In this document: one piece after another, positions 2,101 through 49,388 of the stretch
How the letters are laid out: each line of letters opens with the position of its first letter
Position numbering within the stretch: the first letter of the stretch is position 1
NCBI RefSeq assembly: GCF_001598215.1
Contig: NZ_BCXJ01000002.1
Location: 558,001-622,000 of the forward strand
Source of the DNA: Shouchella clausii
Lineage (GTDB): Bacteria; Bacillota; Bacilli; Bacillales; Bacillaceae_D
Reading direction: 5' to 3'
DNA: 64,000 nucleotides
Notes under the pieces: generated by a model
The model's database searches: none
Seen by the model: only the letters and a program-made list of their open reading frames with translations
What the model was told of the DNA's origin: nothing
Position numbers and translations under genes: made by a program

Positions 2101-2254
2101 CAGACTGTAGACAAACGCTCGCATACGTCGTCGTTTGTCTCGGTCATATGCTCATGAACGCCTGTTCTATTCGCATCTTCCCTCACCTGCACTCCTCGTC
2201 TGACAAGCGTTTTCTATCAGTCTGAGGGCGGTTATCGACTTTGTCGACAACCTC
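2101..2254 (-). mobile_element. MITE-like CAGACTG element, full-length copy 1 (154 bp)
   Basis: Read on the minus strand the unit runs from GAGGTTGTCGAC (a small hairpin with arms around an AAA loop) to CAGTCTG. Imperfect terminal inverted repeats bound the inner 124 bp (2101-2224): CAGACTGTAGACAAACGC at one end and CAGACTGATAGAAAACGC read inward from the other. It is flanked by a 23-bp direct repeat of the neighbouring terminator (22/23 identical). It closely matches the copy at 10142-10296. No ORF of substance. Confidence 0.85.
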
Positions 2255-2277
2255 GCTCCCCATTACTGGGGAGTTTT
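2255..2277 (+). repeat. Right copy of the duplicated terminator hairpin
   Basis: GCTCCCC-ATTACT-GGGGAG-TTTT repeats 2078-2100 with a single substitution in the loop. The T-run is on the plus strand, so it is a copy of the plus-strand gene's terminator rather than an independent terminator for the minus-strand coxA that ends at 2278. This is what a target-site duplication would look like. Confidence 0.8.
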
Positions 2278-3114
2278 TTACTTATTTTGAAACGGACGTC
2301 TTGCTGCATTGCCCAAATCACGCATCATGTCTGTAAACGTGTCTTGGACATCGTCAAAAGCGGCGCCTGAACGTAGCCTGTCGTCCATTCGTTGCATATT
2401 TGAAAAAATGTCGTTGTCTGCACTAACAACTACATTTTTGCCTTCGCCGGCCAATTTGCGGACACGGTTTTCGACACGCTGTTTCACATCGTCTGCGTTT
2501 TCGTCTTGCTCATAGCCTACAACAACGTCGTCGCGATTGACAATAACGCGTGCCTCTCGAACACCGTCGATTTTTTCAACTTCTTCGCGGATTTGTTCCA
2601 CCCGGTCGCCGTCATAATTACGGTGGTAACGAACTTCCTCTGTTTCCATTCCCTGCCGCATGTTTCCGTCTTGGTTCGTAGAACGCTGGACGTTCATACC
2701 GCGGTTTCCGTCTTGGTTCATCGTAGTGCGTTGGAAATTCATGCCGCGGTTACCGTAGTCTGCTCTTCGATTTAGAAAACCATTTTCATCAACCATTCCT
2801 GGACGGTTGTTCCCAGTTATACCACGAACATAGCCATTACGTCCTTGATTATACTGGTTTGTCCGGTTCATGCGTTGGTTTTTATTTGAAAAGCGATTGT
2901 CGTCAAAGAATGTTTTATCATTCGTGTTGTACGCGTTCGGCCCATAATACGGGTAGTTGCGGTTGTTGAAGTTGTTGTCCCCATTCATATTGGCTTCTTG
3001 ATTGCGGTACGTGTTTGGCTGCATTCCGGCGCGGTCGTTATCTTGTGTTCCGCAGCCTGCAAGCCCTGTAAGAAGCACGCTCGCGCAAATAAACGATAAA
3101 GCTGTTTTTTTCAA
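2278..3114 (-). CDS. coxA: CoxA/YhcN-YlaJ family spore cortex lipoprotein
   Basis: 278-aa lipoprotein with signal peptide and lipobox LAGC (Cys21). A long Asn/Arg/Tyr/Met-rich low-complexity region (about residues 25-160, with repeats such as NRGMN and NQDGN) leads into a C-terminal YhcN/YlaJ domain (about 165-278, VEKIDGVREARVIVN). In B. subtilis the cortex lipoprotein CoxA is encoded just downstream of safA, and the order here is the same, which supports the symbol. It would be made during sporulation and located in the spore cortex/inner coat (family knowledge). Confidence 0.8.
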   Translation of the reverse strand: MKKTALSFICASVLLTGLAGCGTQDNDRAGMQPNTYRNQEANMNGDNNFNNRNYPYYGPNAYNTNDKTFFDDNRFSNKNQRMNRTNQYNQGRNGYVRGITGNNRPGMVDENGFLNRRADYGNRGMNFQRTTMNQDGNRGMNVQRSTNQDGNMRQGMETEEVRYHRNYDGDRVEQIREEVEKIDGVREARVIVNRDDVVVGYEQDENADDVKQRVENRVRKLAGEGKNVVVSADNDIFSNMQRMDDRLRSGAAFDDVQDTFTDMMRDLGNAARRPFQNK

Positions 3115-3186
3115 TGGAAATTCCCCCTTTCGGTCTTAGTATGTACCAAAAAGGGGGAACTACGCTGTTAGATTATGGCTGGCAAA

Positions 3187-3200
3187 AAGACGTTAGTCTT
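3187..3200 (-). terminator. Small stem-loop at the safA stop codon
   Basis: AAGAC-GTTA-GTCTT encloses the safA stop and is followed on the minus strand by a short T-run. It is weak (5 bp), so it may be a partial internal terminator between safA and coxA. Confidence 0.3.
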
Positions 3201-4638
3201 GTTGGTCTTCTTCTTCGTATGCGTTTACTTGTTCCTCTGGCTCGTATTCCTGCTCTTGCGAATACGGGCTTTGTGGGTGCGCCCATTGATGGGGCTGGGT
3301 TAAAAAGGATGGAGCTTGGTTCGTGTAATAGGGCTGCTGGTGTGTTTGGTCATCTGGCTGGCCTGTAGGCGTCTGCCTATAGAAGCCTGCCTGTTGATTT
3401 AACGTTTCTGGACTAACAAAAGGCATGTGCGGTGGCAAATAGCCGTTTGCTACTGGCATGTGCGGCAAACCGGCTGGCTGCCACCCTTGGTAGCTCTGAA
3501 TTGGCGGAGTATCACCTACTTCTCCTTGATAAGGAGAGTAGCGGTTGTACTGTCCCCAATTGATGTCCATTTGCTGAAAATGTGGTTGCGGCCCGTTGTT
3601 TTGCCCCCAGTTCATTTCTACTTGGTGGGCATACGCTTGTTCTTGGCCTTTGTTTTGCTGCTGTGGCCAAGGCGTAAAGTCTTGTTGCCCTTGGAAAGCC
3701 TTATTTTGATTTTCTTGGATTGGATAACTTTGTTGATTCCATCCCCCGCCTTGCTGAATAAACGGGGCGTTGCTTCCCCACGGAGACTGCTGACCATAAG
3801 AGCCGTTTTTTGAGCTTGCCTCATGTGCCTGTGGCTGTACCCCATTCCATTCCCCCGTCTTATTGTCCTTCTTATCCTGATGTTTGCCCGAGGTTTCTTG
3901 ATGCTTAGGCCCATGCAACTGAGCTTGGAGCTGTGCATTTTCTCCATACGCTTGTGGTTGATTTGCTTGTGGCTGATATGTCTGTGGCTGGTACGGCTGC
4001 GGTTGGTTTGCTTGTGGCTGGTACAACTGTGGCTGATATAACTGCGGTTGGTTTGCTTGTGGCTGGTATGACTGTGACTGGTATAACTGCGGTTGGTTTG
4101 CTTGTGGCTGGTATGACTGTGACTGGTACGACTGCGGTTGGCTCATTTGCTGGCTGTAAAGCTGTTGGTTTGGTACGTAAGACTGCTGGTACATATTTGC
4201 TTGTGGCGCAAAAAAACCAGCTTGCCCTTGGTAAGCATTTTCTTGGCAAGGTGTGCAAGGCGGTTTTGGTGGAAGCGGCGGATATTCTGGCGTTTTTGCT
4301 ACACCTTGTTGCATCTGGGCATAATATGGTGGCGCCGGTGGGACATTCGCCGCTTGTGTTTTCTCTGACTCCTTCAGCTCCGGCTTTTTAGGCGGTTTAG
4401 TTGATTGTTCTTTCGTTTTTTGCGGCTTCTTATCTGCTTCTTTTGCTTTTGGCGTCGTCTTTTTCTGTTCTTTCCGGACAGCAACTGAGCCAGCAGGCAC
4501 TTTCACTTTCATGCCTGGCATCAACATTTCAGGGTTTGTTAAATTCGGGTTTGCTTCTTTTAATTGTTCGTAATCGACTTCATACTTCTGCGCTAATTTC
4601 CATAAAGTATCTCCCTTTTGGACAATATGGATTCTCAC
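3193..4638 (-). CDS. safA: SafA, spore coat morphogenetic LysM protein
   Basis: 481-aa protein that organises the inner spore coat in bacilli. The N-terminal LysM domain (residues 2-48, VQKGDTLWKLAQKYEVDY) should bind cortex peptidoglycan. A Lys/Pro-rich linker (52-90) and a very long Gln/Pro/Tyr-rich region follow. Residues about 165-231 are a run of near-identical YQPQANQPQ units, repetitive in the DNA too (3946-4146). The C-terminus is acidic. B. subtilis also makes a shorter form from an internal Met164; a Met lies at 165 here but no clear ribosome binding site precedes it. Its neighbours nadA and coxA match B. subtilis. Confidence 0.93.
   Translation of the reverse strand: MRIHIVQKGDTLWKLAQKYEVDYEQLKEANPNLTNPEMLMPGMKVKVPAGSVAVRKEQKKTTPKAKEADKKPQKTKEQSTKPPKKPELKESEKTQAANVPPAPPYYAQMQQGVAKTPEYPPLPPKPPCTPCQENAYQGQAGFFAPQANMYQQSYVPNQQLYSQQMSQPQSYQSQSYQPQANQPQLYQSQSYQPQANQPQLYQPQLYQPQANQPQPYQPQTYQPQANQPQAYGENAQLQAQLHGPKHQETSGKHQDKKDNKTGEWNGVQPQAHEASSKNGSYGQQSPWGSNAPFIQQGGGWNQQSYPIQENQNKAFQGQQDFTPWPQQQNKGQEQAYAHQVEMNWGQNNGPQPHFQQMDINWGQYNRYSPYQGEVGDTPPIQSYQGWQPAGLPHMPVANGYLPPHMPFVSPETLNQQAGFYRQTPTGQPDDQTHQQPYYTNQAPSFLTQPHQWAHPQSPYSQEQEYEPEEQVNAYEEEDQQD
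3946..4146 (-). repeat. Tandem repeats encoding YQPQANQPQ units in safA
   Basis: In-frame degenerate repeats of about 27-45 bp within safA, built on TACCAGCCACAAGCAAACC-like units as read on the minus strand. Protein-level repeats of Gln/Pro/Tyr are typical of coat scaffold proteins. Copy number is likely to vary between strains. Confidence 0.8.
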
Positions 4639-4760
4639 AGGCTGTTCCCTCCTTACTAGGCATTCATCCTATAGACTATGCAAGAGCATAAAATCGGTTC
4701 ACATGCAACGTTCCCCAATACTTATGTATAGACTGCTCGGCCTAGACCAAAAAAATCAAT

Positions 4761-4869
4761 CAAACCATTTGAAAACCCTAGTCAGACGAGGGGTGAAGCC
4801 GCCAGGAGATACGAATAGGACCGGGATTCATGAGCAGTGGTTTTCTTACTTTGACGTCTGCGAGCGTTT
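4761..4869 (+). mobile_element. MITE-like CAGACTG element, degenerate copy 2
   Basis: The inner part still matches the family (GTCAGACGAGGGGTGAAG, then ACGAATAGGA, TTCATGAGCA and GCGAGCGTTT), but the 5' inverted repeat is eroded and the 3' one ends at GCGAGCGTTT. A strong terminator hairpin follows directly at 4870. It lies in the 298-bp gap between nadA and safA, which otherwise shows no gene. Confidence 0.65.
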
Positions 4870-4916
4870 ACAACCCAAAAGAGCGGATCAGTGTAGTGTC
4901 CGCTCTTTTGGGTTGT
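4870..4916. terminator. Strong hairpin downstream of nadA
   Basis: Arms ACAACCCAAAAGAGCGGA and TCCGCTCTTTTGGGTTGT pair perfectly over 18 bp around an 11-nt loop. It sits 20 nt beyond the nadA stop, on the downstream side for that minus-strand operon, and would end nad transcription before safA. Confidence 0.75.
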
Positions 4917-4936
4917 CGCTCCGGTCGACAAAACCA

Positions 4937-6031
4937 CTAGACTGTCGCCAGCATCCGCGCTAACGCCGTTCTTGCTTCATCAGCGACGTCTTCAGGGACC
5001 GTAATGTCAAATTGACGTTTGCCTTCCCGCAGCAAATCCAGTGACCAAGCAAGGTGATCCAAATCAATGCGGTTCATTGTTAAGCAAAGGCACATAGTTG
5101 AGTGAAGAGAAAACACTTGCTTATCCGGATGCTGTTTCGCTAAACGATTGACCAAGTTCATTTCCGTCCCAATTGCCCAGGATGTTCCCGGCTCCGCTTG
5201 TTTTAATGTTTCAATAATGTAGTGTGTGCTCCCAGCTTTATCTGCAGCTTGTACAACTTCGTGGGTGCACTCTGGATGAACAATAACTTGTGTATGCGGG
5301 GAACGGGCGCGCACTTTTTTAATTTGCTCCACTGTAAATTTTTCATGAACAGAACAGTGCCCTTTCCATAAAATGACGGTGATTTCTTCTATGTTCGCAC
5401 CAGGGATGAGCTCGAGTTCATGTGTATGAGGATTCCAGACCGCCATTTTTTCTAAAGGAATGCCAAGTGCAAAAGCTGTGTTTCTCCCCAGGTGTTGGTC
5501 AGGCAAAAACAATAACCTTGGCTTTTGAGCAAACGCCCACTTCACCATGTTTTTAGCGTTTGATGACGTTACGCAAGCACCGCCATGGCGACCGCAAAAC
5601 GCTTTAATTTCAGCGGTGCTGTTGACATACGTCAGCGGCAATATCGTGTCTCCGAATCGTTCCGTCAGCGCTTCCCAAGCGCGCTCCGTTTGGGCGATCG
5701 AAGCCATATCGGCCATCGAACAGCCAGCAGCAAGATCAGGCAGGATCACATGCTGCTCTCGACTCGTTAGCATGTCTGCTGTCTCCGCCATAAAATGAAC
5801 ACCGCAAAAAACGATATTGGCGGATGACGTTTGCCTGCACAGTTGCGCAAGTTGCAATGAATCGCCAGTGAAGTCAGCAAATTGGATGACGTCCTCTCGC
5901 TGGTAATGGTGGCCTGGGATGAGTAGGTCATTGCCAAAAAATGCTTTCGCTTCGCGAATGCGCGCTTCTTTTTCAGCACTTGACATTTCCCGATAGTGAT
6001 GAGGCAATCTCGCTGGTTGCATTACTTCCAT
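4937..6031 (-). CDS. nadA: NadA quinolinate synthase
   Basis: Condenses iminoaspartate with dihydroxyacetone phosphate to quinolinate, using a [4Fe-4S] cluster. 364 aa, the usual length. It has GHHYQRED near residue 40 and cluster/conserved cysteines at 104 (AAGCSMADM), 226 (KGHCSVHE), 255 (HPECTHEV) and 314/316 (MCLCLTMN). The ATG at 6031 overlaps the nadC stop by 10 nt, so translation is coupled. Third gene of nadB-nadC-nadA. Its cluster is presumably built with help from the divergent IscS/NifS homologue. Confidence 0.97.
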
Positions 6032-6870
6032 TGTCCTTCCCCCTTTTGTATAAGCATGCTCAAATCGAGTGCGACAACTGAATGTGTCAAAAATCCGAGC
6101 GACAGAAAATCAACGCCAGTATTGGCAAATTGCCGCAAATTGGCCATCGTTATCCCTCCTGAGGCCTCCGTCTTTATTCCAGTTGGGACATATTCCAAGT
6201 AGGTTCTAATCGCCTCTGGAGTAGCGTTATCAAACATGATGACGTCCGCCTGCGCTGCGACTGCTTCTTTGACCTCGTCTAAAGTCGTCGTCTCTACTTC
6301 AATTTTTGCCATCGGCCCAGCATAAGCGCGGGCTTTTTCGATTGCAGCAGCAATCGACGTGCAAGCGGCAATATGGTTTTCTTTTAACATGACGGCATCG
6401 TCAAGACCAAAACGGTGGTTGGCTCCCCCTCCTATCCTGACTGCATATTTGTCAAACATTCTAAGCCCTGGCGCTGTTTTTCGGGTATCGCAAACACGAA
6501 TGCTTGGATCGCCTAATTCTTCGACTGCTTTTGCTGTCAGTGTGGCAATGCCGCACATTCGCTGCAGTAAATTGAGCAATACCCGTTCGCCCGATAATAG
6601 CGATTTGACAGGCCCTGTAAACCGAGCCAATTGCTGCCCTCGTTTCACTTGCTCTCCATCACCAATAAACAGTTCGACTTCGATATCAGAATCGAGCAAA
6701 GCGTATAGCTGGTTGACTACTTGTGTTCCTGCAAAAATGCCTTCTCCTTTGGCAATCATAACAGCCTCTGCTCTTTCGATCGTGAACAGCGCTTCAGCTG
6801 TACGGTCTCCATAACCAATGTCTTCTGCCAAAAATCCTCTTAACTGCTGATCAAGCTTGAGCGGGTTCAT
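6022..6870 (-). CDS. nadC: NadC quinolinate phosphoribosyltransferase
   Basis: Converts quinolinate and PRPP to nicotinate mononucleotide, the last step of de novo NAD precursor synthesis. 282 aa. Family signatures are TRKTAPGLR near residue 140, [19 protein letters not shown] and the C-terminal IKTEASGGI. The start overlaps the end of nadB by 20 nt and the end overlaps nadA by 10 nt, a tightly coupled operon. Confidence 0.97.
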
Positions 6871-8395
6871 ATTCTCTCTCCTCTGTTTTCACAAATGCTT
6901 TATCCTGTACAGAAAAACAAATCGAGCGCTTCCGCCATTGTTCGTCTGCTGCCGGATAATCGCTGCGCCTATGGGTGCCTCTTGTTTCCGTACGCAACAA
7001 AGCTGCTTTTACAACAAGTGTTGCGAGCTCATACAAAGTACCCGTTTCTAAATCGTCAACATGCACAACCGTTTTCTTTGGCATCTGTTGAAACGAAGCA
7101 AGCCAATCAGCCGCTGTTTGCAATCCATAGGCGTCACGTTCAATACCTGCATAGGCACTCATCATTTTTTGCAATTCGCTACGTTCAGGAATCCCATGCA
7201 CCAATGCCTTATTCGGCTGCGGCTTAACCGCTCCCGCTTTTGTTTGTTGATCAGCTAACAAAGCCGCTGCCACTCCTTGCCCGTAAACAAGTGCCTCGAC
7301 GAGCGAATTGCTAGCTAAACGATTTGCGCCATGAACACCAGTACAAGCAGCTTCGCCAATTGCGTACAACCCGTTTACCGAAGTGCGGCCAAATTGGTCT
7401 GTCTCAATGCCGCCGCATAAAAAATGGGCGCCTGGTTCAATCGGGATTAAGTCTTTGCGAACATCATAGCCATTTCGCTGCAGACGTCGAAAAATCGCAG
7501 GAAACCGACTTGGAAAATCATGCAAATGTCTAGCATCTAAAAAAACACGCTCGCCAGATTGCAACGCTTTATGTAATGTGGCCGCTACAACGTCCCGCCC
7601 TTCAAGTTCCCCTTTTGCCCATTTTCCCATTAGCCGATCGCCTGCCCGATTGACCAAGTAAGCACCTTCGCCACGGACTGCTTCGCTAATGAGGCCTGGT
7701 TCTTTCCCTTTTAAAATCGTCGGATGGAATTGGATGAACTCAAGATCTTTAAGGATAGCGCCAGCACGATAAGCTAACATTAACCCGTCTCCCGTTGCTC
7801 TCTGCTCATTCGAACTATTTTCATACAATTGTCCAGAGCCGCCAGTTGCTAGGATCACGCTATCGCCGTAAAAAGCGTGATTAACAGTACGAACGCCTTG
7901 GATTGTTTGATTTTTCACAATCAGCTCCAGCACATATTGGTTTTCGTACACATGCACGTTGTCACTAAGTGTCCGCCATAACGTTTCGACAACAGCCAAG
8001 CCTGTTTGATCTTGATAAGCATGCAAAATGCGCCGCTTGCTATGCGCCCCTTCATGGCCTAGGACATATTGGCCAGCTGCTTTTTCAAACGGGACCCCTA
8101 AAGCATCGAGCTCTTTAATCATTGCTGGAGCCTGCCGAGCGAGCTCAAACGCACGGTTAAACGCATTAAAACCGCTGCCTGCGACAAACGTATCTCTCGC
8201 ATGGAGTGTTGGATGATCGGTTTCGCCTACTGCGGCCGCAATCCCCCCTTGAGCCATACATGAATTGCTGTCCAACCTGCCCGCCTTCATTAGGAGCGAT
8301 ACCTCTGCTTTATCCGCCAATTTATGGGCAGCCATTAGCCCAGCTATACCGGCGCCAATAATGATGACTGATTTCTTTTTCATAGACTCACTCAC
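6851..8395 (-). CDS. nadB: NadB L-aspartate oxidase
   Basis: FAD enzyme that oxidises L-aspartate to iminoaspartate, the first step of NAD synthesis. About 514 aa. The dinucleotide-binding GAGIAGL is near residue 14, and CMAQGGIAAA, QFHPT, SEAVRGEG and GVHGANRLASNSL are flavoprotein/succinate-dehydrogenase family motifs. The start is uncertain: GTG at 8395 has no clear ribosome binding site, and the ATG at 8383 (MKKKSVIIIGAG) has a weak one. Divergent from iscS, with a candidate NiaR operator in the shared 5' region. Confidence 0.95.
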   Translation of the reverse strand: MSESMKKKSVIIIGAGIAGLMAAHKLADKAEVSLLMKAGRLDSNSCMAQGGIAAAVGETDHPTLHARDTFVAGSGFNAFNRAFELARQAPAMIKELDALGVPFEKAAGQYVLGHEGAHSKRRILHAYQDQTGLAVVETLWRTLSDNVHVYENQYVLELIVKNQTIQGVRTVNHAFYGDSVILATGGSGQLYENSSNEQRATGDGLMLAYRAGAILKDLEFIQFHPTILKGKEPGLISEAVRGEGAYLVNRAGDRLMGKWAKGELEGRDVVAATLHKALQSGERVFLDARHLHDFPSRFPAIFRRLQRNGYDVRKDLIPIEPGAHFLCGGIETDQFGRTSVNGLYAIGEAACTGVHGANRLASNSLVEALVYGQGVAAALLADQQTKAGAVKPQPNKALVHGIPERSELQKMMSAYAGIERDAYGLQTAADWLASFQQMPKKTVVHVDDLETGTLYELATLVVKAALLRTETRGTHRRSDYPAADEQWRKRSICFSVQDKAFVKTEEREYEPAQA

Positions 8396-8400
8396 TTTAC

Positions 8401-8445
8401 AGTTGTCTTGTCACCTATATTTACATAAACTAATAGAAAACACAA
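8401..8445 (-). promoter_or_regulatory. nadB promoter with candidate NiaR operator
   Basis: On the minus strand TTGTGT (8440-8445), 16 nt and TAAATA (8418-8423) form a possible SigmaA promoter for nadB. Just downstream, at the expected start of transcription, AGTTGTC-TT-GTCACCT (8401-8416) is an imperfect inverted repeat. NiaR (YrxA) represses nadB and iscS in B. subtilis and is encoded two genes away, so this is the best operator candidate. Assignment by position and symmetry only. Confidence 0.45.
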
Positions 8446-8466
8446 CCTTTAAGAATGGAGATTGCC

Positions 8467-9582: not shown

Positions 9583-9589
9583 GATAAAG

Positions 9590-10126
9590 ATGAAAAAAGA
9601 GAAAAAGTTAATGTCAAATGAGCGGCGGGCCGCGATTGTTGAGTGGCTTAAAAAGGAAAACGCCCCGCTAAAAGGCAGTGATCTCGCTAAGCGGGCAGGC
9701 GTCAGCAGGCAAGTCGTTGTACAAGACATGTCGCTTTTAAAAGCGAAAGGGGAACCGATTTTTGCTACTGCACAAGGGTACATGTACTTGGCCCCTGCTA
9801 CCCAGCAAAAAGTCCAGCGTTTGATTGCTGTACAGCATCGCCCGGAAGATACACGGGAAGAACTTTACACATTTGTGGACCATGGCCTTACTGTCATCAA
9901 CGTTTCGATTGAACATGCGATTTATGGTGAATTAACGGGAGCGATGCATGTTTCCAACCGCCAAGAAGTCGACGCTTTTTGCGCGAACCTTGCTGACACG
10001 AAAGCAAGCCTTCTGTCTGAGCTGACAGAAGGCGTCCACCTTCATTTAGTGGAAGGGCAAAACGAAGCACAAGTGGAAAAGGCGATCGCCGCACTCCGAG
10101 AAAAGGCGTTTTTGCTAGAAGAGTAG
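9590..10126 (+). CDS. niaR: NiaR (YrxA) NAD biosynthesis repressor
   Basis: Niacin-responsive repressor of NAD synthesis and niacin uptake genes. 178 aa. N-terminal helix-turn-helix (HTH_11, about residues 5-60: SDLAKRAGVSRQVVVQDM) and C-terminal 3H domain with the conserved histidines (DHGLTVINVSIEHAIYG, AMHVSNR, GVHLHLVEG). The ATG at 9590 has AGGTGA 7 nt upstream and lies 7 nt after the iscS stop, so the two are co-transcribed. Its likely target is the nadB-iscS intergenic region. Confidence 0.93.
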   Translation: MKKEKKLMSNERRAAIVEWLKKENAPLKGSDLAKRAGVSRQVVVQDMSLLKAKGEPIFATAQGYMYLAPATQQKVQRLIAVQHRPEDTREELYTFVDHGLTVINVSIEHAIYGELTGAMHVSNRQEVDAFCANLADTKASLLSELTEGVHLHLVEGQNEAQVEKAIAALREKAFLLEE

Positions 10127-10141
10127 CGCTTAGCTACTCTT
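10117..10141 (+). terminator. Hairpin after niaR; left copy of a 25-bp duplication
   Basis: AGAGTAGC-GCTTA-GCTACTCT stem-loop overlapping the niaR stop codon. The same 25 bases occur at 10297-10321 with one loop substitution, on the far side of a full-length repeat element. Confidence 0.75.
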
Positions 10142-10296
10142 GAGGTTGTCGACAAAGTCGATAACCTCGCTCAGACTGATAGAAAGCGCTTGTCAGACGA
10201 GGAGTGAAGACGAGGGAAGATGCGAATAGAACAGGGGTTCATGAGCATATGACCGAGGCAAAATGACGAAGTATGCGAGCGTTTGTCTACAGTCTG
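10142..10296 (+). mobile_element. MITE-like CAGACTG element, full-length copy 3 (155 bp)
   Basis: Runs from GAGGTTGTCGAC to CAGTCTG, exactly the boundaries seen at 2101-2254 in the other orientation. It begins with a hairpin (arms GAGGTTGTCGAC and GTCGATAACCTC, AAA loop, 10142-10168) and then the 125-bp part with terminal inverted repeats (10172-10296). It is flanked by a 25-bp direct repeat of the terminator hairpin (24/25). It separates the convergent niaR and pheA genes. Confidence 0.87.
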
Positions 10297-10321
10297 AGAA
10301 GAGTAGCGCCTAGCTACTCTT
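10297..10321. repeat. Right copy of duplicated hairpin, next to the pheA stop
   Basis: AGAGTAGC-GCCTA-GCTACTCT with flanking bases identical to 10117-10141 apart from one loop base. It ends 2 nt before the pheA stop and could serve as the pheA terminator. Direct orientation of the asymmetric loop shows that this is a duplication, not an inverted pair. Confidence 0.78.
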
Positions 10322-10322
10322 C

Positions 10323-11198: not shown

Positions 11199-11213
11199 AA
11201 AAACGCTTCCTTT

Positions 11214-14208: not shown

Positions 14209-14358
14209 ATGACGTTTTCATTTATTTTTTTTACGATAAGCATTAAAAAGCGCAAACGCCCCGAGTATTCGCGCGCCGAACTAGAAGCTTTTATCCGTGC
14301 CGAAAAAATGGAGCAGGAATATGAAGAGCTAAAAACGCGCTATTTGCATCACCTTTAA
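14209..14358 (+). CDS. yrzI: YrzI-family small protein, paralogue 1
   Basis: 49-aa protein beginning MTFSFIFFTISIKKRKRPEY, with a short hydrophobic N-terminus, a basic patch and a charged helix ending YLHHL. It resembles the YrzI family of tiny Bacillus proteins (unknown role, sometimes present in several copies). A strong AAGGAGG lies upstream. A second copy with the same length and about the same sequence is at 42226-42375. The hydrophobic/basic build also recalls small membrane-active peptides, but that is speculative. Confidence 0.7.
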   Translation: MTFSFIFFTISIKKRKRPEYSRAELEAFIRAEKMEQEYEELKTRYLHHL

Positions 14359-14371
14359 TCAATGAGAAAAT

Positions 14372-14418
14372 CAGACTGATAGAAAACCTTGTCAATGCGA
14401 GCGTTTGTCTACAGTTTG
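14372..14418 (+). mobile_element. MITE-like CAGACTG element, minimal copy 4 (47 bp)
   Basis: CAGACTGATAGAAAAC joined almost directly to GCGAGCGTTTGTCTACAG: both inverted repeats survive and nearly all the middle is deleted. A perfect terminator hairpin begins at its last base. Confidence 0.8.
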
Positions 14419-21221: not shown

Positions 21222-21270
21222 CATAATAGCATATAAGCGAGGCAAGTGAGACGAAGGCGACAAAATCACT

Positions 21271-21338
21271 CAGACTGATAGAAAACGGTTGTCAGCCGAG
21301 ACGAACAACGAAGGTTGCGAGCGTTTGACTACAGTCTG
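21271..21338 (+). mobile_element. MITE-like CAGACTG element, copy 5 (68 bp, internal deletion)
   Basis: Starts CAGACTGATAGAAAACG and ends GCGTTTGACTACAGTCTG. The middle is shortened. Upstream GGCGACAAAATCACT is a remnant of the tail hairpin. A perfect terminator hairpin begins 1 nt after it. It separates ccdA from that terminator. Confidence 0.82.
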
Positions 21339-21339
21339 A

Positions 21340-21363
21340 AGGGAGCGCAACGTTGCGCTCCCT
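21340..21363. terminator. Terminator between ccdA-like and ecsC
   Basis: Perfect palindrome with arms AGGGAGCGCAAC and GTTGCGCTCCCT, followed by TTTG. It lies between convergent genes. Confidence 0.75.
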
Positions 21364-24672: not shown

Positions 24673-25226
24673 ATGAATGTCAGTGTTTACGATCCTTCGC
24701 CTCCCAAAGTTGGTTTCTAGATATGTTGATTTCTAGATATTTTGAGCATTAGAAGTCACTGGCGTTTTTTTCGCCTTTTTAATGTGGCTATCCTTTCCTA
24801 GCTTCATTACAGGGCATCCCTGCCATTGGCGGGACACACTTAGCCTGGAACTTTGCTGGAAAAACAAATCGGCATTTATATTAGCTGAGGATGTACGTAA
24901 TAAGAGGTCAAGAGACTGCCAGGCTGTAGACAAACGCGCCAACTGTCGTGTTCGACAGGCGTTTTCTATCAGTCTGATTGACTTTGTCGACAACATTAGG
25001 ACTGACATGATCACATGTTCGCTAAAAACGCTGCCGCAAGACGGAGTATAGAAGGAGCACACGCTATAGAACCAAGCTTTTAAAGATTGGATTGATGGGT
25101 TAAGGAGAGAGTAAGTCATTTTTTCATAAAACTTTTTTGGAAAAATGCACATGATGACGCCAAACTGTGGTATGATTCTGATAATAACACACTTTAAAGC
25201 AATAAAGATACTAGGAGTGGTCAGCC
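24673..25226. other. Gene-poor interval between hit and serC
   Basis: 554 bp with no credible gene. An antisense open frame at 24733-25152 has no ribosome binding site and no recognisable sequence. The interval holds a weak GGCG-T7-CGCC-TTTTT hairpin near 24761, one copy of the CAGACTG element, and an extended -10 box TGGTATGAT (25168-25176) that probably serves serC. Confidence 0.6.
24921..24976 (-). mobile_element. MITE-like CAGACTG element, copy 6 (56 bp)
   Basis: Minus orientation: AGGCTGTAGACAAACGC on the left, GCGTTTTCTATCAGTCTG on the right, then the tail-hairpin remnant TTGACTTTGTCGACAAC (24978-24994). The centre is deleted to about 20 bp and contains a TGTCG-TGT-TCGACA inverted repeat. 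Confidence 0.8.
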
Positions 25227-30000: not shown

Positions 30001-30103
30001 CGTATCGTCCATCCTTCCGCATCCGTTTTGGCTTTCTAGTAAAACGTATGCATTAGAAAAATAGAATAGAACTGTAGAGATGATCAAAGTCGACAAAACC
30101 ATC

Positions 30104-30218
30104 CAGACTGATAGAAAATGCATGTCTACCGATGTACGAAGCCGAGTGAAAATGAGAATAGAACAGCGTTCATGACGGGTTCCAAGCATAGGAACGAAGG
30201 CGTTTGTTTAACAGTTGG
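30104..30218 (+). mobile_element. MITE-like CAGACTG element, copy 7 (115 bp, diverged)
   Basis: Preceded by the tail remnant AAAGTCGACAAAACCATC. Starts CAGACTGATAGAAAATGC and ends GCGTTTGTTTAACAGTTGG. The centre retains GAGAATAGAACAGCGTTCAT and holds an extra GGTTCCAAGCATAGGAAC inverted repeat. It sits between yhaL and yhaM and is one of the few copies between co-directional genes. Confidence 0.75.
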
Positions 30219-34542: not shown

Positions 34543-34678
34543 AAAACTGATAAAAAACACCGCCCTTTCTTAAAAGAGCGGATACAGAATGTTTCCCTAT
34601 TCAAAACAGTGAAGATGCGAATCGATGAGCATCTGAGCAAAAAACGACAGCGCCTGATGAGCGTTTGCCTATCGTCTG
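34543..34678 (+). mobile_element. MITE-like CAGACTG element, degenerate copy 8
   Basis: Begins AAAACTGATAAAAAACACC (diverged inverted repeat). It keeps GAAGATGCGAAT, GATGAGCATCTGAGC and GATGAGCGTTTGCCTAT, and ends CGTCTG. Its end forms a CGTCTGT/ACAGAGACG hairpin with the following bases. It adjoins the tnpB relic and precedes the yhaX-like stop. Confidence 0.65.
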
Positions 34679-34699
34679 TACCCTACGACAGAGACGATC

Positions 34700-37875: not shown

Positions 37876-37942
37876 GTCCGACAAACGCAAACGGTAGAGC
37901 GAGACAAACGATGAAGTATGCGAGCGTTTTTCTACAGTCTGA
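37876..37942 (+). mobile_element. MITE-like CAGACTG element, copy 9 (67 bp)
   Basis: Begins GTCCGACAAACGC and ends GCGAGCGTTTTTCTACAGTCTG, with GAGACAAACGATGAAGTATG from the family's 3' half. The 5' end is diverged. A terminator begins 1 nt after it. Confidence 0.75.
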
Positions 37943-37943
37943 A

Positions 37944-37971
37944 AGAAGCCCTGAGAGGCTTCTTTTTTGTT
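37944..37971 (+). terminator. Terminator after element copy 9
   Basis: AAGAAGCC-CTGAG-AGGCTTCTT followed by TTTT; it ends transcription of the 53-aa gene across the repeat. Confidence 0.8.
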
Positions 37972-42009: not shown

Positions 42010-42225
42010 AACGGAGTAAAATCGATGGGCTTTTAATCAACAGGCCCAGTCCCTTTCCTGCACTCTTTATTAAAAAGAAGCAGGGGGTCGTTTCATACAC
42101 GTGCACAGCAAGTGGGAGCCATTTGTCCTGAGATTCGTCATGAAAAGCAAGCCTGGAAAAACCAAGTGAAAATAGCTGGCAACGACGAAAAGCATACCGT
42201 TAATAGAAAGGAGGCAGCAAAAACA
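42010..42225. other. Leader region of the second YrzI gene
   Basis: 216 bp. A CCTGC-AC-TCTTT / AAAGA-A-GCAGG stem-loop lies at about 42058-42084. Upstream reading frames continuous with yrzI lack a ribosome binding site. No sequence similarity to the leader of the first YrzI copy. Confidence 0.4.
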
Positions 42226-42375
42226 ATGACATTTTCATTCCTTTTTTTCACGATAACCATTAAAAAGCGCAAGCGCTTAGAATGTTCACAAGCTGAACTG
42301 GAAGCGTTTATCCATGACGAAAAAATCGAAAAGCAAATAGAAGCGATCAAAACGCGTTATTGGCACCATCTTTAA
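42226..42375 (+). CDS. yrzI: YrzI-family small protein, paralogue 2
   Basis: 49 aa starting MTFSFLFFTITIKKRKRLEC and ending TRYWHHL; nearly the same as the copy at 14209-14358, including length and the last residues. AAAGGAGG at 10 nt supports the ATG at 42226; a longer in-frame ORF from 42112 has no ribosome binding site. Function unknown. Confidence 0.75.
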   Translation: MTFSFLFFTITIKKRKRLECSQAELEAFIHDEKIEKQIEAIKTRYWHHL

Positions 42376-42501
42376 TTGAACATCGTAAAACGAGACCAAA
42401 TTAGGTCTACTGTTGTTACAGTGCCTGTCCTCAAAATATTCCTAGCCGTATACGAGAAGAAAATCAAGTTGGGTGATTGTTTGGTGATCATCTATCCTGA
42501 C

Positions 42502-42539
42502 GAAAAAGGCCCATAAGACCGTTACTGGCCTTATCGGGC
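42502..42539 (-). terminator. Terminator of the yngJ-H-HB-F-E operon
   Basis: Minus strand GCCCGATAAGGCC-loop-GGTCTTATGGGC then CTTTTTCG, about 40 nt after the yngE stop. Confidence 0.65.
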
Positions 42540-42576
42540 AAAAGGGATTTGTCATTATATTTTCAAGCGTTACGCC

Positions 42577-44106: not shown

Positions 44107-44120
44107 CTCGCTCTCAACTC

Positions 44121-44909
44121 CTATTTTCCTTTGTAAACGGGAGGGCGCTTTTCTTTGAATGAAGCAAGCCCTTCTAAACGATCCTCGGTTTGCAATGTCT
44201 GTAAATATGCTTCGCGTTCCACAGCCAAAGCGGCTTCAAGAGGAAGGGCTGCCCCTTCGTTGATTGCTTTTTTTGCTGCTCGCAGCGCAATCGGGCCGTT
44301 GCCCGCCATCTCGATCGCCAACTGTGAAGCGGCTGCGGATGTTTTTTCTCGAGGCAGTGCCCATTCGCACAAACCGTAATTACAGGCTTCTGTTCCAGTT
44401 AAACGCCTTGCCGTGAAAATCAGTTCCTTTGCCTTTCCTGGGCCAATTAAACGAGGCAGCCGTTGCGTCCCTCCAGCTCCTGGAATAATTGCCAATTTTG
44501 TTTCCGTCAAACCATAAAAACGGTCTTCGGCAAAAATGCGGACATCGCAAGCAAGGCACAGTTCTAACCCGCCGCCAAAGGCACTGCCTCCAACTTCGGC
44601 AATGACAGGCTGTGGAAGCTTTTCAACACGGGCAATGACTTCGCCAATCCGCTTGACCGCATAGATGGCCTCGCTTTCTGTCATGTTTGCCCGTTCTTTT
44701 AAGTCAGCACCGGCACAAAACGCTTTTTCGCCTGCGCCGGATAAAATAACAGCACGGATGCTGCTCTCTTGTTCAACCCAGTCGCAAGCCGCTTCAAGTT
44801 CATCTAAAAGCGCAAGCGAGAGCGCATTGGCTGCTTGTGGACGGTTTAATGTAATACGGGCAATTCCATCGTCAGCTGCTGTCTGCACAAGCGTTTTACT
44901 CGAGCTCAA
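44121..44909 (-). CDS. yngF: Enoyl-CoA hydratase (YngF-like)
   Basis: 262 aa crotonase-family protein. Oxyanion-hole segments [13 protein letters not shown] (about 60) and [16 protein letters not shown] (about 105), and Glu-containing [16 protein letters not shown] (about 135). Likely methylglutaconyl-CoA hydratase in leucine catabolism by context. TTG start at 44909 overlaps the biotin carrier gene; GGGG lies 9 nt upstream. Confidence 0.88.
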
Positions 44910-45108
44910 TCAAAACGTCCCCTTCATTGACAAACTCCCCTTCTGGCTTTACGATCGCCTTTACTTTCCCTGAACGCTCTGCCTCAATTGGAATTTCCAT
45001 TTTCATTGATTCTAAAATGGCGACTTCATCCCCAGCCTTTACTTCGTCTCCTTCTTTTACTGTAACTTTCCAAACGTTCCCTGCCATTGTCGCTGTAATG
45101 TGGTTCAT
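44896..45108 (-). CDS. yngHB: Biotin carboxyl carrier protein (YngHB)
   Basis: 70-aa single biotinyl domain with the biotinylated lysine K36 in [10 protein letters not shown]. Carries CO2 from the biotin carboxylase to the carboxyltransferase. Its ends overlap both neighbours by a few bases. Confidence 0.93.
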
Positions 45109-46466
45109 GCTTCTCTCTCCTTTATGAAAAGTTCTTCTTTGTAATCGTTTAAAAAGGATGTTGGCGTGTTGCCTTCATTAAAAGCTTGATGGTCGCATAT
45201 TGCCCGCAAAAGAGGCAGATTGGTTTTTACCCCAGTTATTTCATATTCATTAAGCGCCCCCTTTAGTCGAGTAATCGCTTCAGCGCGCGTGCCCCCTTTG
45301 ACAATGAGCTTAGCGATCATCGGGTCATAAAACGGCGTAATCACGCTTCCTGCTTTTACCGGACATTCATGGCGGATAAAAGGTTGTTTCGGGAGAGAGA
45401 TGTCCTTTATCGTCCCAGGTGAAGGGAAAAAGCGTATTGGGTCTTCTGCGTAAATGCGGACTTCGATCGCATGGCCGCTGCCTCTTAGCTCATGCTGCTG
45501 CCACGGCAGCACATCGCCATTTGCTATCCGCAATTGCCATTCCACAAGATCAATGCCAAAGACTTCCTCTGTCACTGGATGTTCGACTTGCAGCCGTGTA
45601 TTCATTTCCAAAAAGTAATAATTTCCGTCGCTGTCTAGCAAACATTCAATTGTGCCAGCATTTTCATAACCAATGGCGGCCGCTGCTTTTTTCGCCATTT
45701 CTTCCATCGCCTCGCGAGTCGTTTGGTCTAAAAAAGGAGACGGCGCTTCTTCTACGACTTTTTGGTGCCTCCTTTGAATCGAACATTCCCGTTCCCCAAA
45801 TGCGAGGATATGGCCATTGCTGTCAGCAAGCACTTGAATTTCAATGTGGCGTGGCCGCTCAAGCAACTTCTCCAAATAAAGGGAGCTGTCGCCAAAAAAC
45901 ATACGTGCTTTCTTTTCGTTTCGGGCAAATGCCGCTTCGATTTCCTCTTCATTCCGGCACACATCAATGCCAATGCCGCCGCCACCTGAAGCAGCTTTGA
46001 CCATAACCGGAAAGCCAATTTCCCTTGCTTTCGTCTTTGCTTCGGCTGCTGAGGCAAGGGCGCCACTTCCTGGAATAACAGGAATGCCCGCTGCTTCCAT
46101 CGTCTTTCTAGCTTGCAATTTATCGCCCATCAGCGCAATTGCTGTCGCTGATGGGCCGATAAATGTTAGCCCATTGTCTTTACAGGCGGTCGCAAATGAA
46201 GCCTGCTCTGACAACAGTCCGTAACCGGGATGGATGGCATCAGCTTTTGCTTGTTTGGCAACGGCCAAAATCTGTTCTTGGTTTAAATAGCTCTCCTGGA
46301 CACGTGAACCGCCGATGCAGTAGGCTTCGTCAGCAAGCGCGACGTGTTCTGCACCACAATCAGCTTCTGAATAAACAGCGATTGTCTTTACCCCAAGCTG
46401 TTTGCATGTACGGATAATTCGTGAGGCAATTTCGCCACGGTTGGCAATTAATACTGTGTTGATCAC
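45105..46466 (-). CDS. yngH: Acetyl/acyl-CoA carboxylase biotin carboxylase subunit (YngH)
   Basis: 453 aa ATP-grasp biotin carboxylase. N-terminal [20 protein letters not shown], glycine loop [17 protein letters not shown]-type [36 protein letters not shown]. Start overlaps the dehydrogenase stop (ATGA). Distinct from a housekeeping accC by its operon. Confidence 0.92.
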
Positions 46467-47635
46467 TGTTTCGCCTCCTTTTGCTGTAAAGAAGCTAACC
46501 CTAAATGCCTAGCAATGACAAGGCGTTGGATTTCCGAAGTGCCTTCGCCGATTTCCAACAGTTTGGCATCACGGAGCATCCGTTCAACTTCATATTCGCG
46601 CATATACCCATAGCCGCCATGAATTTGCAAGGCCTGGTTGCATGTACGTGTTGCCATTTCAGAAGCAAACAGTTTGGCATAGGCAGCTTCTTTGCCAAAC
46701 GGTGCTCCTGCGTCCTTTAAAGCGGCTGCTTTGTGAACCATATTACGAGCAAGTTCAATTTCCATCGCCATATCAGCTAGCTTAAATTGAATCGCTTGGA
46801 ATGAGCCGATCGGCTTCGAAAATTGTTTTCTTTCCTTCGCATAGGCTAACGCCCGGTCAAAGGCAGCTTGGGCAATGCCGACTGCAAGGGCGGCAATCGA
46901 AATTCGCCCACCATCCAGCGTATAAAGGAACTGGCTGAAGCCTTTTCCAGGATCGCCGAGCAAATTGCTTTCAGGGACACGGACATCTTCAAGAACAAGT
47001 TCACATGTGTTTGAAGCGCGGACACCCATTTTGTCGTAGGGAGCCGTAATCGTAAAACCAGGCGTATTTGTTGGTACAATAAACGCAGAAATCTGTTTTT
47101 TGCCGTTTGATTGCGTTCCGGTAACAGCAGTAATGATAACGGTTTGCGCGTACATGGCATTCGTAATCCAACATTTCTCGCCATTGAGAATATATTCGCC
47201 ATTTTCAAAAACAGCTTTCGTTTGCGTCCCTCCGGCGTCAGAACCAGCATTTGGTTCTGTTAGCCCGAATGCACCAAGGGACTCGCCTTTAGCAAGTGGG
47301 ACTAAATACGTTTGCTTTTGCTCTTCTGTGCCGTAGTAGAAAATCGGGCTTGCACCAAGGGATACGGCCGCGGCATAACTTAAGCCCGTACCGCCGCATG
47401 CGTAGCCGATTTCTTCAACAGCTAGTGCATAAGAGACCGTATCTCCTCCTGACCCACCGTATTTTTCGGGGAATGGCAAACCGAGCAATCCAAGCTGCCC
47501 CATCTTTTTAAAAATCGCCTCTGGAAAACGCGAATCTCGATCTAGCTCTTGCGCTAGTGGGGCAATTTCCTTGCGTGCAAATTGCCTTACCATGTCTTTA
47601 ATCATTTCTTGGTCTTTTGTCAGTCTGACTGTCAT
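46463..47635 (-). CDS. yngJ: Acyl-CoA dehydrogenase (YngJ, isovaleryl-CoA type)
   Basis: 390-aa FAD dehydrogenase. Family motifs: [30 protein letters not shown], and C-terminal [41 protein letters not shown]. It leads the operon, matching isovaleryl-CoA oxidation as step one of leucine degradation after transamination. Context-based substrate assignment. Confidence 0.9.
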
Positions 47636-47660
47636 GGCATGCTCTCCTTCTTTTCATAAT

Positions 47661-47676
47661 CTGAGCGACCGTTCAG
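47661..47676. promoter_or_regulatory. Palindromic operator upstream of yngJ
   Basis: CTGAGCGACCGTTCAG, symmetric as CTGANCG-NN-CGNTCAG, between the promoter and the yngJ ribosome binding site. The shape resembles sites of TetR-family acyl-CoA-responsive repressors (FadR/LiuR-like). No such regulator gene is in the window next to it. Confidence 0.55.
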
Positions 47677-47712
47677 GAAAAAGCCAACCTCGGAAATGAA
47701 AGCGTTACCAAA

Positions 47713-47741
47713 ATCGTATCGTACTCTTTTTCGTAAGTCAA
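47713..47741 (-). promoter_or_regulatory. SigmaA promoter of the yng operon
   Basis: TTGACT (47736-47741), 17-nt spacer, TACGAT (47713-47718) on the minus strand; start expected near 47706, placing the palindrome about 30 nt downstream in a roadblock position. Confidence 0.7.
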
Positions 47742-47884
47742 ATCCTTTCTGTTTATCCTATTTGCCCCATCCAGTGGCTATGCTGTTCTTTTCGCGCCAT
47801 CCATGCTAGACTTTTTTTATGGAAAAACGAAACTTCGATTTTTGCTGTTCGTAAATGGTATAAAAAGAAAGGTGGTACATAGAG

Positions 47885-48433
47885 ATGATCATTCTTATCA
47901 TCGTCATTATTGCTGTTATTGCGCTTGCTTGGATTGCTAGCTACAACTCTCTCGTCAAGCACCGAAATTGGGCCGAGGAATCGTGGGCACAAATTGATGT
48001 GCAGTTAAAGAGACGCTATGATTTAATTCCCAATCTCGTTGAAACCGTAAAAGGCTACGCTAAACATGAACAGGAAACGTTGACTGGCGTCATTGAAAAA
48101 CGAAACGCCATTGCCCAGCCGAATGCGAGCCGCCACGAACGTGTCGAGCAAAATGCTGAGCTAAACGGCATGCTTCGGCAACTGTTTGCCCTCGGGGAAT
48201 CATACCCCGATTTAAAAGCGAACAAAAACTTTTTGCAGCTACAGGAAGAGCTTGCTGGAACAGAAAATAAAATTGCTTATGCCCGTCAAGCTTATAATTC
48301 AACCGTGATGCGCTATAATACAAAGCTGGAGTCGTTTCCATCCAATCTAATCGCTAATATTCATTCTTTTATGCGCATGGAACTCCTTGACATTCCTGAT
48401 GAAGAAAAAGAACCGGTAAAAGTGCAATTTTAA
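47885..48433 (+). CDS. lemA: LemA family protein
   Basis: 182 aa. N-terminal hydrophobic anchor (2-19), then the LemA coiled/helical domain with YNSLVKHRNWAEESWAQIDVQLKRRYDLIPNLVETVKGYA. Function unsettled; LemA genes often pair with HtpX-type proteases, as here. AAGGTGG lies upstream. Operon with the peptidase gene 12 nt downstream. Confidence 0.93.
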   Translation: MIILIIVIIAVIALAWIASYNSLVKHRNWAEESWAQIDVQLKRRYDLIPNLVETVKGYAKHEQETLTGVIEKRNAIAQPNASRHERVEQNAELNGMLRQLFALGESYPDLKANKNFLQLQEELAGTENKIAYARQAYNSTVMRYNTKLESFPSNLIANIHSFMRMELLDIPDEEKEPVKVQF

Positions 48434-48445
48434 GGAGGGGAGCCA

Positions 48446-49321
48446 TTGTTTCATATCCAAATTGCCCGCAATAAACGAAAGACGGTTTTTTTAGTCGCCC
48501 TCTTTATTGCTTTTGTTCTCTTGATCGGCGCAGCAATTACGTACGTACGTGCCGGCGATTATGTGAGCGGCGCCATTTTTGCCGCTGTCATCGCCGGAGG
48601 CTATACGATTTTTATGATTTCCACGAGCACGAATATTGTCATGCGCATGAACCATGCCCGTGAGATCACTTCATCAACGGAACAGCCGTTTTTGTGGCAT
48701 ACCGTCGAGGGATTAGCAATTGCAGCGCGGATCCCGATGCCGCGGATTTTTATTATTCAAGACAAAAGCCCGAACGCCTTTGCAACAGGGATTTCGCCAA
48801 AATCAGGCGCTGTAGCCGTCACTTCCGGATTGATGGAGCGCCTCTCCCGCGAAGAAATTGAAGGCGTGCTTGCTCATGAAGTGGCCCATATTCGCAATTA
48901 TGATATTCGCTTATCAACCATTGCTGTCGCTCTCGTATCAGCTATCGCGATTTTGAGCGACCTCGGTATGCGTTTTTTCGTGTTTTCTGGAGGACGTAAT
49001 AAAGACAACAAGCACCCGCTTATTCTCATCATTGCCATTTTCCTCGTCTTGCTTTCGCCGCTTGTGGCGACGATGATGCAGCTTGCCATTTCCCGCAACC
49101 GCGAATATTTGGCTGATGCAAGCGCCGTAGAGTTGACCCGCAACCCTGTAGCATTGGCAAGCGCACTAGAAAATATTACGAATACGCGCACCCCTGTGGA
49201 AGAAGCATCCTCTTCAACCGCATCGCTATACTTTGCTGACCCATTAAAAAAGAAAGCCGCTTCGTTATTTTCAACCCATCCGCCCCCAGAGGAACGGATA
49301 AAACGATTGCGGAATATGTAA
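48446..49321 (+). CDS. htpX: HtpX-like membrane zinc metallopeptidase (M48)
   Basis: 291 aa. Two N-terminal transmembrane helices (about 14-32 and 40-60), zinc site HEVAH (His144, Glu145, His148), a second pair of helices (about 160-178 and 190-213) and third-ligand region NREYLADASAVEL. TTG start at 48446 follows AAGGAGGGG. Quality control of membrane proteins by family. Followed by element copy 10. Confidence 0.9.
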   Translation: MFHIQIARNKRKTVFLVALFIAFVLLIGAAITYVRAGDYVSGAIFAAVIAGGYTIFMISTSTNIVMRMNHAREITSSTEQPFLWHTVEGLAIAARIPMPRIFIIQDKSPNAFATGISPKSGAVAVTSGLMERLSREEIEGVLAHEVAHIRNYDIRLSTIAVALVSAIAILSDLGMRFFVFSGGRNKDNKHPLILIIAIFLVLLSPLVATMMQLAISRNREYLADASAVELTRNPVALASALENITNTRTPVEEASSSTASLYFADPLKKKAASLFSTHPPPEERIKRLRNM

Positions 49322-49331
49322 AAAATTATTT

Positions 49332-49388
49332 AGACGGATAGAAAACGCTTGTCAGCTGAGATGAACAACAAAGGATGCGAGCGTTTGC
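49332..49388 (+). mobile_element. MITE-like CAGACTG element, copy 10 (57 bp)
   Basis: AGACGGATAGAAAACGCTTG with GTCAGCTGAGATGAACAACA and GCGAGCGTTTGCC. It is similar to copy 5 (same internal deletion, AACAACRAAGG). The last inverted-repeat bases are replaced by the terminator hairpin. Confidence 0.75.

What the first reader, a model, noticed from the sequence alone, without database searches (positions are those of the whole stretch)
2101..49388. Dispersed MITE-like family with CAGACTG terminal inverted repeats, at least ten copies
Seen directly: copies at 2101, 4761, 10142, 14372, 21271, 24921, 30104, 34543, 37876 and 49332, all intergenic, in both orientations. They share CAGACTGATAGAAAACGC at one end, GCGTTTGTCTACAGTCTG at the other (imperfect inverted repeats), and an inner block with GAATAGAACAGGGGTTCATG. 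Most copies are internally deleted (47-70 bp) but keep both ends. This is the behaviour of a non-autonomous transposable element or REP/BIME-type repeat. At roughly one copy per 5-6 kb it could be the main repeat of this genome. I do not know a published description.
Basis: seen in the sequence. Interest (0 to 1): 0.85.

Follow-up and report, generated by a model that had tools for sequence, protein, structure and literature searches.

The report
Mini-transposon that copies transcription terminators
A short DNA parasite scattered through this bacterium is found mainly inside the hairpin stop-signals at the ends of genes, with a complete extra copy of the hairpin on its other side, a habit it shares with a group of larger jumping genes that probably move it.

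Summary
The repeat is real: all ten window copies are confirmed, and its end motif occurs 73 times in the genome. It is a 142-191 bp (mostly 154 bp) non-autonomous transposable element (MITE). Of 40 distinct sites, 35 keep the direct repeat (14-34 bp, mean 24); its length follows the hairpin (r 0.97), and 32 of 35 are stem-spanned against 1.7% of random windows. Orthologous empty sites hold one intact hairpin; two insertions differ within the species. The likely mover is a group of IS1182-family insertion sequences with similar ends: five copies in a relative, no intact one found in this assembly. That group shows whole-hairpin duplication at 34 of 42 assessable loci; a second IS1182 group shows it at 0 of 30. 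Described IS1182 elements IS1272 and TnSha1 delete the hairpin instead. A DDE transposase whose target duplication is measured by the hairpin suggests joining at both 5' feet of a cruciform (inferred).

The parts
2101..2254 (-). full-length element, 154 bp
2078..2100 (.). terminator hairpin, copy 1 of the target duplication (GCTCCCCATTATTGGGGAGTTTT)
   Evidence: single hairpin at the orthologous empty site of G001
2255..2277 (.). terminator hairpin, copy 2 of the target duplication (one mismatch)
10142..10296 (+). full-length element, 155 bp
10117..10141 (.). terminator hairpin, copy 1 of the target duplication
   Evidence: single hairpin (loop inverted) in G001 and G007
10297..10321 (.). terminator hairpin, copy 2 of the target duplication (one mismatch)
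4752..4869 (+). decayed copy next to a long terminator hairpin
14372..14418 (+). internally deleted copy lacking the outer left end; abuts one hairpin; the site is a single hairpin in G001 and G007
21250..21344 (+). internally deleted copy abutting a terminator hairpin
24920..24999 (-). internally deleted copy; no clear hairpin beside it
30085..30175 (+). decayed copy; right part not recognisable to the profile
34608..34680 (+). decayed copy, right part only; no clear hairpin beside it
37897..37947 (+). decayed copy, right part, abutting a terminator hairpin; G001 has a full copy with duplicated hairpin at this site
49328..49391 (+). decayed copy beside a terminator; in G001 that terminator hairpin is replaced by another IS1182-family element

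Best explanation
The repeat is a MITE moved in trans by transposases of one group of the IS1182 family (group A here). The transposase appears to recognise a hairpin-forming inverted repeat, in practice an intrinsic transcription terminator, by its shape and not its sequence. [quoted passage not shown] gap filling then copies the entire hairpin on both sides. The target duplication is therefore as long as the hairpin (19-42 bp in the IS loci, 14-34 bp in the MITE sites), unlike the fixed length usual for DDE transposases. SHOWN: hairpin targets, whole-hairpin direct duplication, empty sites, similar ends and shared habit with group A IS1182 elements, and a contrast with a second IS1182 group. 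INFERRED: trans-mobilisation of this MITE by such a transposase; a cruciform (four-way junction, where the two 5' feet lie side by side whatever the arm length) or an exposed single-strand hairpin as the true target; a benefit for the element, in that insertion at a gene's end leaves a hairpin on both sides.
For: MITE sites: 55 full copies gave 40 distinct sites; 35 of 40 have a direct repeat within 4 nt of both ends; a stem spans it in 32 of 35; length against stem span r = 0.97; pairing of the outer six positions is 0.83, falling to 0.32-0.63 at ten shifts between -6 and +6 nt. With a stability cut-off 32 of 35 pass, against 343 of 20,000 random windows and 319 of 20,000 starting outside long ORFs. 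An A- or T-tract lies at the edge of 32 of 35 (no background rate taken). Empty sites: seven G000 copies, and one copy each of G011, G001 and G007, face clean single-hairpin sites in at least one other genome (read by eye). One copy (G000 region 279177) is absent from G011 of the same species and one G011 copy is absent from G000. Partner: NF033551, E 4.9e-145; five copies in G001 and eleven matching pieces in G038, another genus. Ends, four IS types compared: MITE-left against IS-left 15, 16, 15, 13 of 18; MITE-right against IS-right 14, 14, 17, 15 of 18. Habit: hairpin direct repeat at 34 of 42 assessable group A loci, 0 of 30 in group B by the same blind test. Three named plasmid loci: two positive, of which one (L288) repeats a site already counted as L232. 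Independent hint: a survey finds IS1182 among ten IS families over-represented between convergent genes (PMC9208149, passages).
Against: No intact group A transposase was found in this genome at the limits used; only fragments of IS1182-like genes remain, so present mobility here is unproven. In 400 kb only 1 of 22 G000 sites and one G011 site differ within the species. The copy absent from G011 but present in G000 and G007 could be a precise loss by recombination between the repeats. Five of 40 sites and 8 of 42 group A loci lack a clean repeat. Only copies with both ends recognisable entered the 40; decayed copies were not tested, and three of the eight decayed window copies show no clear hairpin beside them. 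Of the seven empty-site pairs of G000, the occupied side has the hairpin on both sides in five; one (173582) keeps a partial second hairpin and one (200680) a single one. Group A and B loci were chosen by two query proteins, so their separation in the tree is partly by design. The insertion chemistry is not observed.
Confidence: 0.9

Rival explanations
1. The transposase acts on a hairpin formed in single-stranded DNA, for instance on the lagging strand, and not on a double-stranded cruciform; the duplication arises when the fork is repaired.
For: Any process that exposes one strand would present the same hairpins; the sequence data do not separate the two.
Against: The direct duplication at stem bases is most simply made by two staggered joins on duplex DNA; no replication-strand bias was tested here.
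Confidence: 0.25
2. The terminator hairpins belong to the element: it carries or captures a hairpin, or lies between two tandem terminators, and no target duplication is involved.
For: 35 of 40 full copies have matching hairpin repeats on both sides.
Against: Hairpin sequences differ from site to site, the two copies of a site match each other, and relatives hold a single copy of that same hairpin at the empty site.
Confidence: 0.02
3. A REP/BIME-like structural repeat kept for a host function (RNA stability, insulation, nucleoid binding) whose spread is ancient; the mobility is over.
For: Eight of ten window copies are decayed and 21 of 22 sites in 400 kb are shared by both genomes of the species; the consensus folds strongly as RNA; no intact partner found in this genome.
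Against: 21 of 35 hairpin repeats are still exact; two within-species differences and species-specific sites. No Rfam match in the window.
Confidence: 0.07
4. An unrelated transposase family moves the element and the IS1182 end match is convergent.
For: No mobilisation was observed.
Against: Both ends match group A ends at 13-17 of 18 positions in the four IS types compared, in the right order, and the unusual whole-hairpin duplication is shared.
Confidence: 0.04

Closest known systems
IS1272 and TnSha1 (IS1182 family, staphylococci; PMC5678879 and PMC4923244, passages read)
   Same: Same transposase family by name; target is an inverted repeat or hairpin of any sequence, often a terminator. 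PMC5678879 (legend of Fig 13, pathway b) draws whole stem-loop duplication as a possible outcome of joining at the 5' feet.
   Different: Those elements delete or replace the hairpin and leave no target duplication; here the whole hairpin is kept and duplicated. I did not place IS1272 in the tree.
IS1182-family elements with 4-bp duplications (ISPse1, PMC3281130; ISCaa15, PMC3196728; passages read)
   Same: Family assignment.
   Different: 4-bp duplications; group A shows 19-42 bp hairpin-long ones.
Group A IS1182 elements, including a 59% relative annotated ISEfa7 in plasmids (listing only)
   Same: Ends and whole-hairpin duplication in the loci tested (ISEfa7 itself not examined).
   Different: Autonomous, about 1.5 kb in G001; the window's element is 154 bp without a transposase gene.
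Bacterial MITEs in general (review PMC10969869, passages read)
   Same: Short, terminal inverted repeats, target duplications, truncated copies.
   Different: The text holds no occurrence of IS1182 or hairpin; terminators are mentioned for SPRITE-like elements, not as duplicated targets.
REP/BIME and RAYT-linked repeats (features recalled; PMC2817692 and PMC3733652 seen in search listings only)
   Same: Dispersed intergenic repeats with hairpins.
   Different: REPs are 20-40 bp palindromes tied to Y1 transposases; this element is 154 bp with DDE-type ends and target duplications.

Membership tests
MITE | short, too small to encode a transposase | tested here: met
   142-191 bp, mostly 154
MITE | terminal inverted repeats | tested here: met
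   the two 18-nt ends agree at 12 of 18; imperfect
MITE | target-site duplication | tested here: met
   35 of 40 sites
MITE | ends shared with an autonomous element | tested here: met
   group A IS1182 in G001, G038 and the order, 13-17 of 18 per end in four types; none intact found in G000
MITE | moved in trans by that transposase | not testable with these tools
   needs an experiment
IS1182 family (the partner) | transposase of the family | tested here: met
   NF033551 484 bits over a cut-off of 270; PF05598 and PF13751
IS1272-type stem-loop replacement | target hairpin lost on insertion, no duplication | tested here: not met
   hairpin duplicated. One group B element in G001 does replace a hairpin (one site)
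REP/BIME | 20-40 bp palindrome units linked to RAYT (Y1) transposases | tested here: inconclusive
   unit size and structure do not fit; RAYT genes were not searched for
known structured RNA | match to an Rfam family | tested here: not met
   0 matches in the window at gathering thresholds

The most novel reading that the evidence does not exclude
A group of DDE transposases (IS1182 group A) whose staggered joining is set by DNA secondary structure and not by a fixed protein ruler: both joins occur at the 5' feet of a cruciform, so that any hairpin, 19 to 42 bp in the loci tested, is duplicated exactly. Another IS1182 group does not duplicate it, and at the one site where I could compare, removed it. 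The MITE family in the window is a large natural record of the duplicating outcome, and it seeds genomes with duplicated terminators.
Probability: 0.6. Interest if true: 0.8.

Novelty: new variant of a known kind. Interest (0 to 1): 0.66.

Why it matters
Target duplications of DDE elements are normally of fixed length, because the transposase holds the two strands a set distance apart (established knowledge, recalled). Here the length follows the target's own hairpin over a twofold range, which points to direct recognition of a cruciform or hairpin. It gives dozens of natural cases of a pathway that PMC5678879 drew as a possibility (Fig 13b). It makes a clear test possible: two IS1182 groups, one that duplicates hairpins at most loci tested and one that shows no such duplication. 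It also shows a way for a parasite to enter gene ends while leaving a hairpin at both junctions, and a way for bacteria to gain tandem terminators.

Tried and rejected
Rfam scan of the window: no match. PF05598 in the own genome: no match at 0.001. A paper search with Bacillus clausii and MITE terms gave nothing relevant in its list, as did Shouchella and transposase terms. Three large inserts at orthologous sites in G001 were looked at as possible autonomous partners: one holds an IS30-like ORF, one reverse-transcriptase-like ORFs (both labels from reading, no search made), one is the group B IS1182 with other ends. Some sites scored 'empty' are not truly empty: G001 (and G007 at the first) at the orthologues of G000 137014, 191037 and 305922, and G000/G011 at the orthologues of G001 28201, 57569 and 283003, keep remnants below the detection limit; G001 63561 is unclear. 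Only clean single-hairpin sites are counted as empty. Tandem pre-existing terminators were rejected on the empty sites. Ten paper searches listed no paper in which I saw whole-hairpin duplication by IS1182 elements or this MITE; I opened seven papers and read passages only. Subscription reviews and ISfinder pages are not held. I recall, from no call, that ISfinder-based tables give IS1182 duplications of 0-60 bp, so curators may have noted long repeats.

Full report
WHAT WAS CHECKED. The end motif CAGACTGATAGAAAACGC, the opposite end GCGTTTGTCTACAGTCTG and the inner block match 7, 7 and 3 times in the window with up to three mismatches; shuffles give 0.04, 0.02 and 0.00. All ten copies of the finding are recovered by a profile built from full-length copies. 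In the whole genome (G000, 4.66 Mb, 14 contigs) a 25-base stretch of the left half matches 73 times with up to three mismatches; the same pattern read backwards matches 0 times. G011 of the same species has 78, G001 73, G007 34, and the other 7 of the 11 genomes searched have 0. One of those seven, G009, does hold diverged copies by BLAST. With a full unit as query the family is found in 6 of 13 genomes of the genus, one of them (G006) weakly; only 40 candidates per genome were scored, so its copy counts are lower bounds. Contig lengths and the loci suggest that G011 is Shouchella tritolerans FJAT-45399 and G007 S. rhizosphaerae DSM 21911; this is inference.

ANATOMY. Thirty copies with their flanks and a consensus of 33 elements show a 154-bp unit. 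The left end is GAGGTTGTCGACAAAGTCGATAACC, itself a small palindrome, followed by CAGACTGATAGAAAACGCTTGTCAGACGAGG; the right end is GAGCGTTTGTCTACAGTCTG. The two outer ends agree at 12 of 18 positions. As RNA the consensus folds into two hairpins (-64.5 kcal/mol, z about -6 against simple letter shuffles). Variants of 178-191 bp carry an extra internal stretch.

THE TARGET. Full copies sit inside an intrinsic-terminator hairpin, and the hairpin is present twice, once on each side, in the same orientation. In the window: 2078-2100 and 2255-2277 around the copy at 2101-2254; 10117-10141 and 10297-10321 around the copy at 10142-10296. From every locus then held I took copies with both ends recognisable (at most three substitutions per end): 55, which collapse to 40 distinct sites. 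A direct repeat within 4 nt of both ends is found at 35 of 40. The five misses are one site with the hairpin duplicated but altered (L054), two decayed ones (L041, L026), one beside a hairpin that resembles the element's own left end (L039), and one tandem array that is probably not a real full copy (L057). Repeat length is 14-34 bp, mean 24.4; a stem spans the repeat end to end (at most two unpaired nt) in 32 of 35; length and stem span correlate at 0.97; pairing of the outer six positions is 0.83 in register and 0.32-0.63 at ten shifts between -6 and +6 nt. With a stability cut-off, 32 of 35 repeats qualify, against 343 of 20,000 random windows of the same lengths and 319 of 20,000 starting outside long ORFs. 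Of the 35, 21 are exact repeats and 32 have an A- or T-tract at the edge of the stem (no background rate was taken); the stem could be continued beyond the repeat by 0 or 1 pairs in 27. Decayed copies were not part of this count; of the eight in the window, five still abut a hairpin and three do not clearly (read by eye).

EMPTY SITES. I took syntenic stretches of 400 kb from G000, G011, G001 and G007. They hold 33 distinct sites. Seven G000 copies face clean empty sites with one intact hairpin in a relative (G000 region positions 173582, 188383, 196423, 200680, 270266, 279177 and 319613). On the occupied side five of the seven have the hairpin on both sides, 173582 keeps a partial second hairpin and 200680 (window 14372) a single one. 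Copies of G011 (71286), G001 (262600) and G007 (132433) likewise face single-hairpin sites in the other three genomes. Several other sites scored empty keep remnants and are not counted. Within the species, the copy at 279177 is present in G000 and G007 but absent from G011 and G001, and the G011 copy at 71286 is absent from G000, G001 and G007. The first could be a loss by recombination between repeats; the second looks like a gain.

THE PARTNER. No DUF772 match was found in G000 at 0.001. At the site of the window's copy at 49328, G001 carries an IS1182-family element of about 1.8 kb (group B here) that has replaced the terminator hairpin. Searching its 625-aa ORF in the genus led to a second IS1182-family element in G001 with five copies of 1.54 kb, whose ends resemble those of the MITE and of which four of five lie between duplicated terminator hairpins. 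Its transposase matches NF033551 (484 bits, cut-off 270), PF05598 and PF13751. Relatives occur in 4 of 41 genomes of the family at 1e-60 and 48 of 397 of the order at 1e-90. Four IS types were compared with the MITE ends (G001, G379, G286, G371): left ends agree at 15, 16, 15 and 13 of 18, right ends at 14, 14, 17 and 15 of 18.

GENERALITY AND CONTROL. A blind test looked for an exact direct repeat of at least 13 nt, itself a hairpin, between the 500 bp on either side of each transposase gene. Group A: 46 loci given, 4 too close to a contig end, 34 of the remaining 42 positive, with repeats of 19-42 bp that abut the element ends within a nucleotide (CAG...CTG). The eight misses are L215, L224, L227, L211, L243, L248, L255 and L256; L224 and L256 show imperfect hairpin duplicates by eye and L227 a 13-nt piece. 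Group B, gathered the same way with the other protein: 33 loci, 3 at contig ends, 0 of 30 positive. That result alone does not show replacement; it shows absence of a hairpin repeat. The two groups separate with full support in a tree of 64 rows; since they were fetched with two queries this is expected. Of three named plasmid loci, Sutcliffiella and Peribacillus are positive and Exiguobacterium is not; the Sutcliffiella one has the same hairpin and nearly the same coordinates as L232 and is not independent.

MECHANISM. A fixed protein ruler would not give repeats of 19 to 42 bp that end at the base of each stem. In an extruded cruciform the two 5' feet are neighbours at the four-way junction whatever the arm length; joining one element end to each 5' foot, followed by repair, duplicates the whole arm. 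PMC5678879 (passages read) draws this as pathway b while arguing for 3'-foot joining and loss of the hairpin in IS1272; PMC4923244 (passages read) reports deletion of part of the hairpin and no duplication for TnSha1. PMC12056078 (passages read) says in general terms that IS1182-related elements act with or without target duplication and on sequence or structure. PMC9208149 (passages read) lists IS1182 among ten families over-represented between convergent genes, which fits a terminator target. I saw no report of hairpin-long duplication in ten searches; curated IS tables were out of reach. That the MITE is moved by such a transposase, and that the target is a cruciform and not a single-strand hairpin, are inferences.

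VERDICT. I rate it a new variant of a known kind.

Noticed in passing
window 10117-10141 and its G001/G007 empty site; G001 region 262600; G007 region 132433: The loop of the terminator hairpin is inverted between species at three sites, seen at empty and occupied sites alike, as if whole hairpins flip.
   Followed up: partly
G001 region, orthologues of window 49328 and of G000 region 170710 and 305922: Terminator neighbourhoods that hold a MITE remnant also took a group B IS1182, an insert with an IS30-like ORF, and an insert with reverse-transcriptase-like ORFs (last two labels from reading only).
   Followed up: partly
window 14209-14359 and 42226-42376 (family D3): A second dispersed repeat, 151 nt at 78% identity, not part of this family.
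   Followed up: no
window 3938-4177 (family D1): Run of 15-bp units inside the ORF at 3193-4638 (minus strand).
   Followed up: no
G038 loci L214, L217, L221, L222: Several group A copies in this outgroup match only parts of the transposase in separate pieces yet keep both ends and a duplicated hairpin, possibly steps on the way to non-autonomous forms.
   Followed up: partly
L039: A full copy lies beside a hairpin that closely resembles the element's own left-end palindrome, possibly an insertion into an older copy.
   Followed up: no
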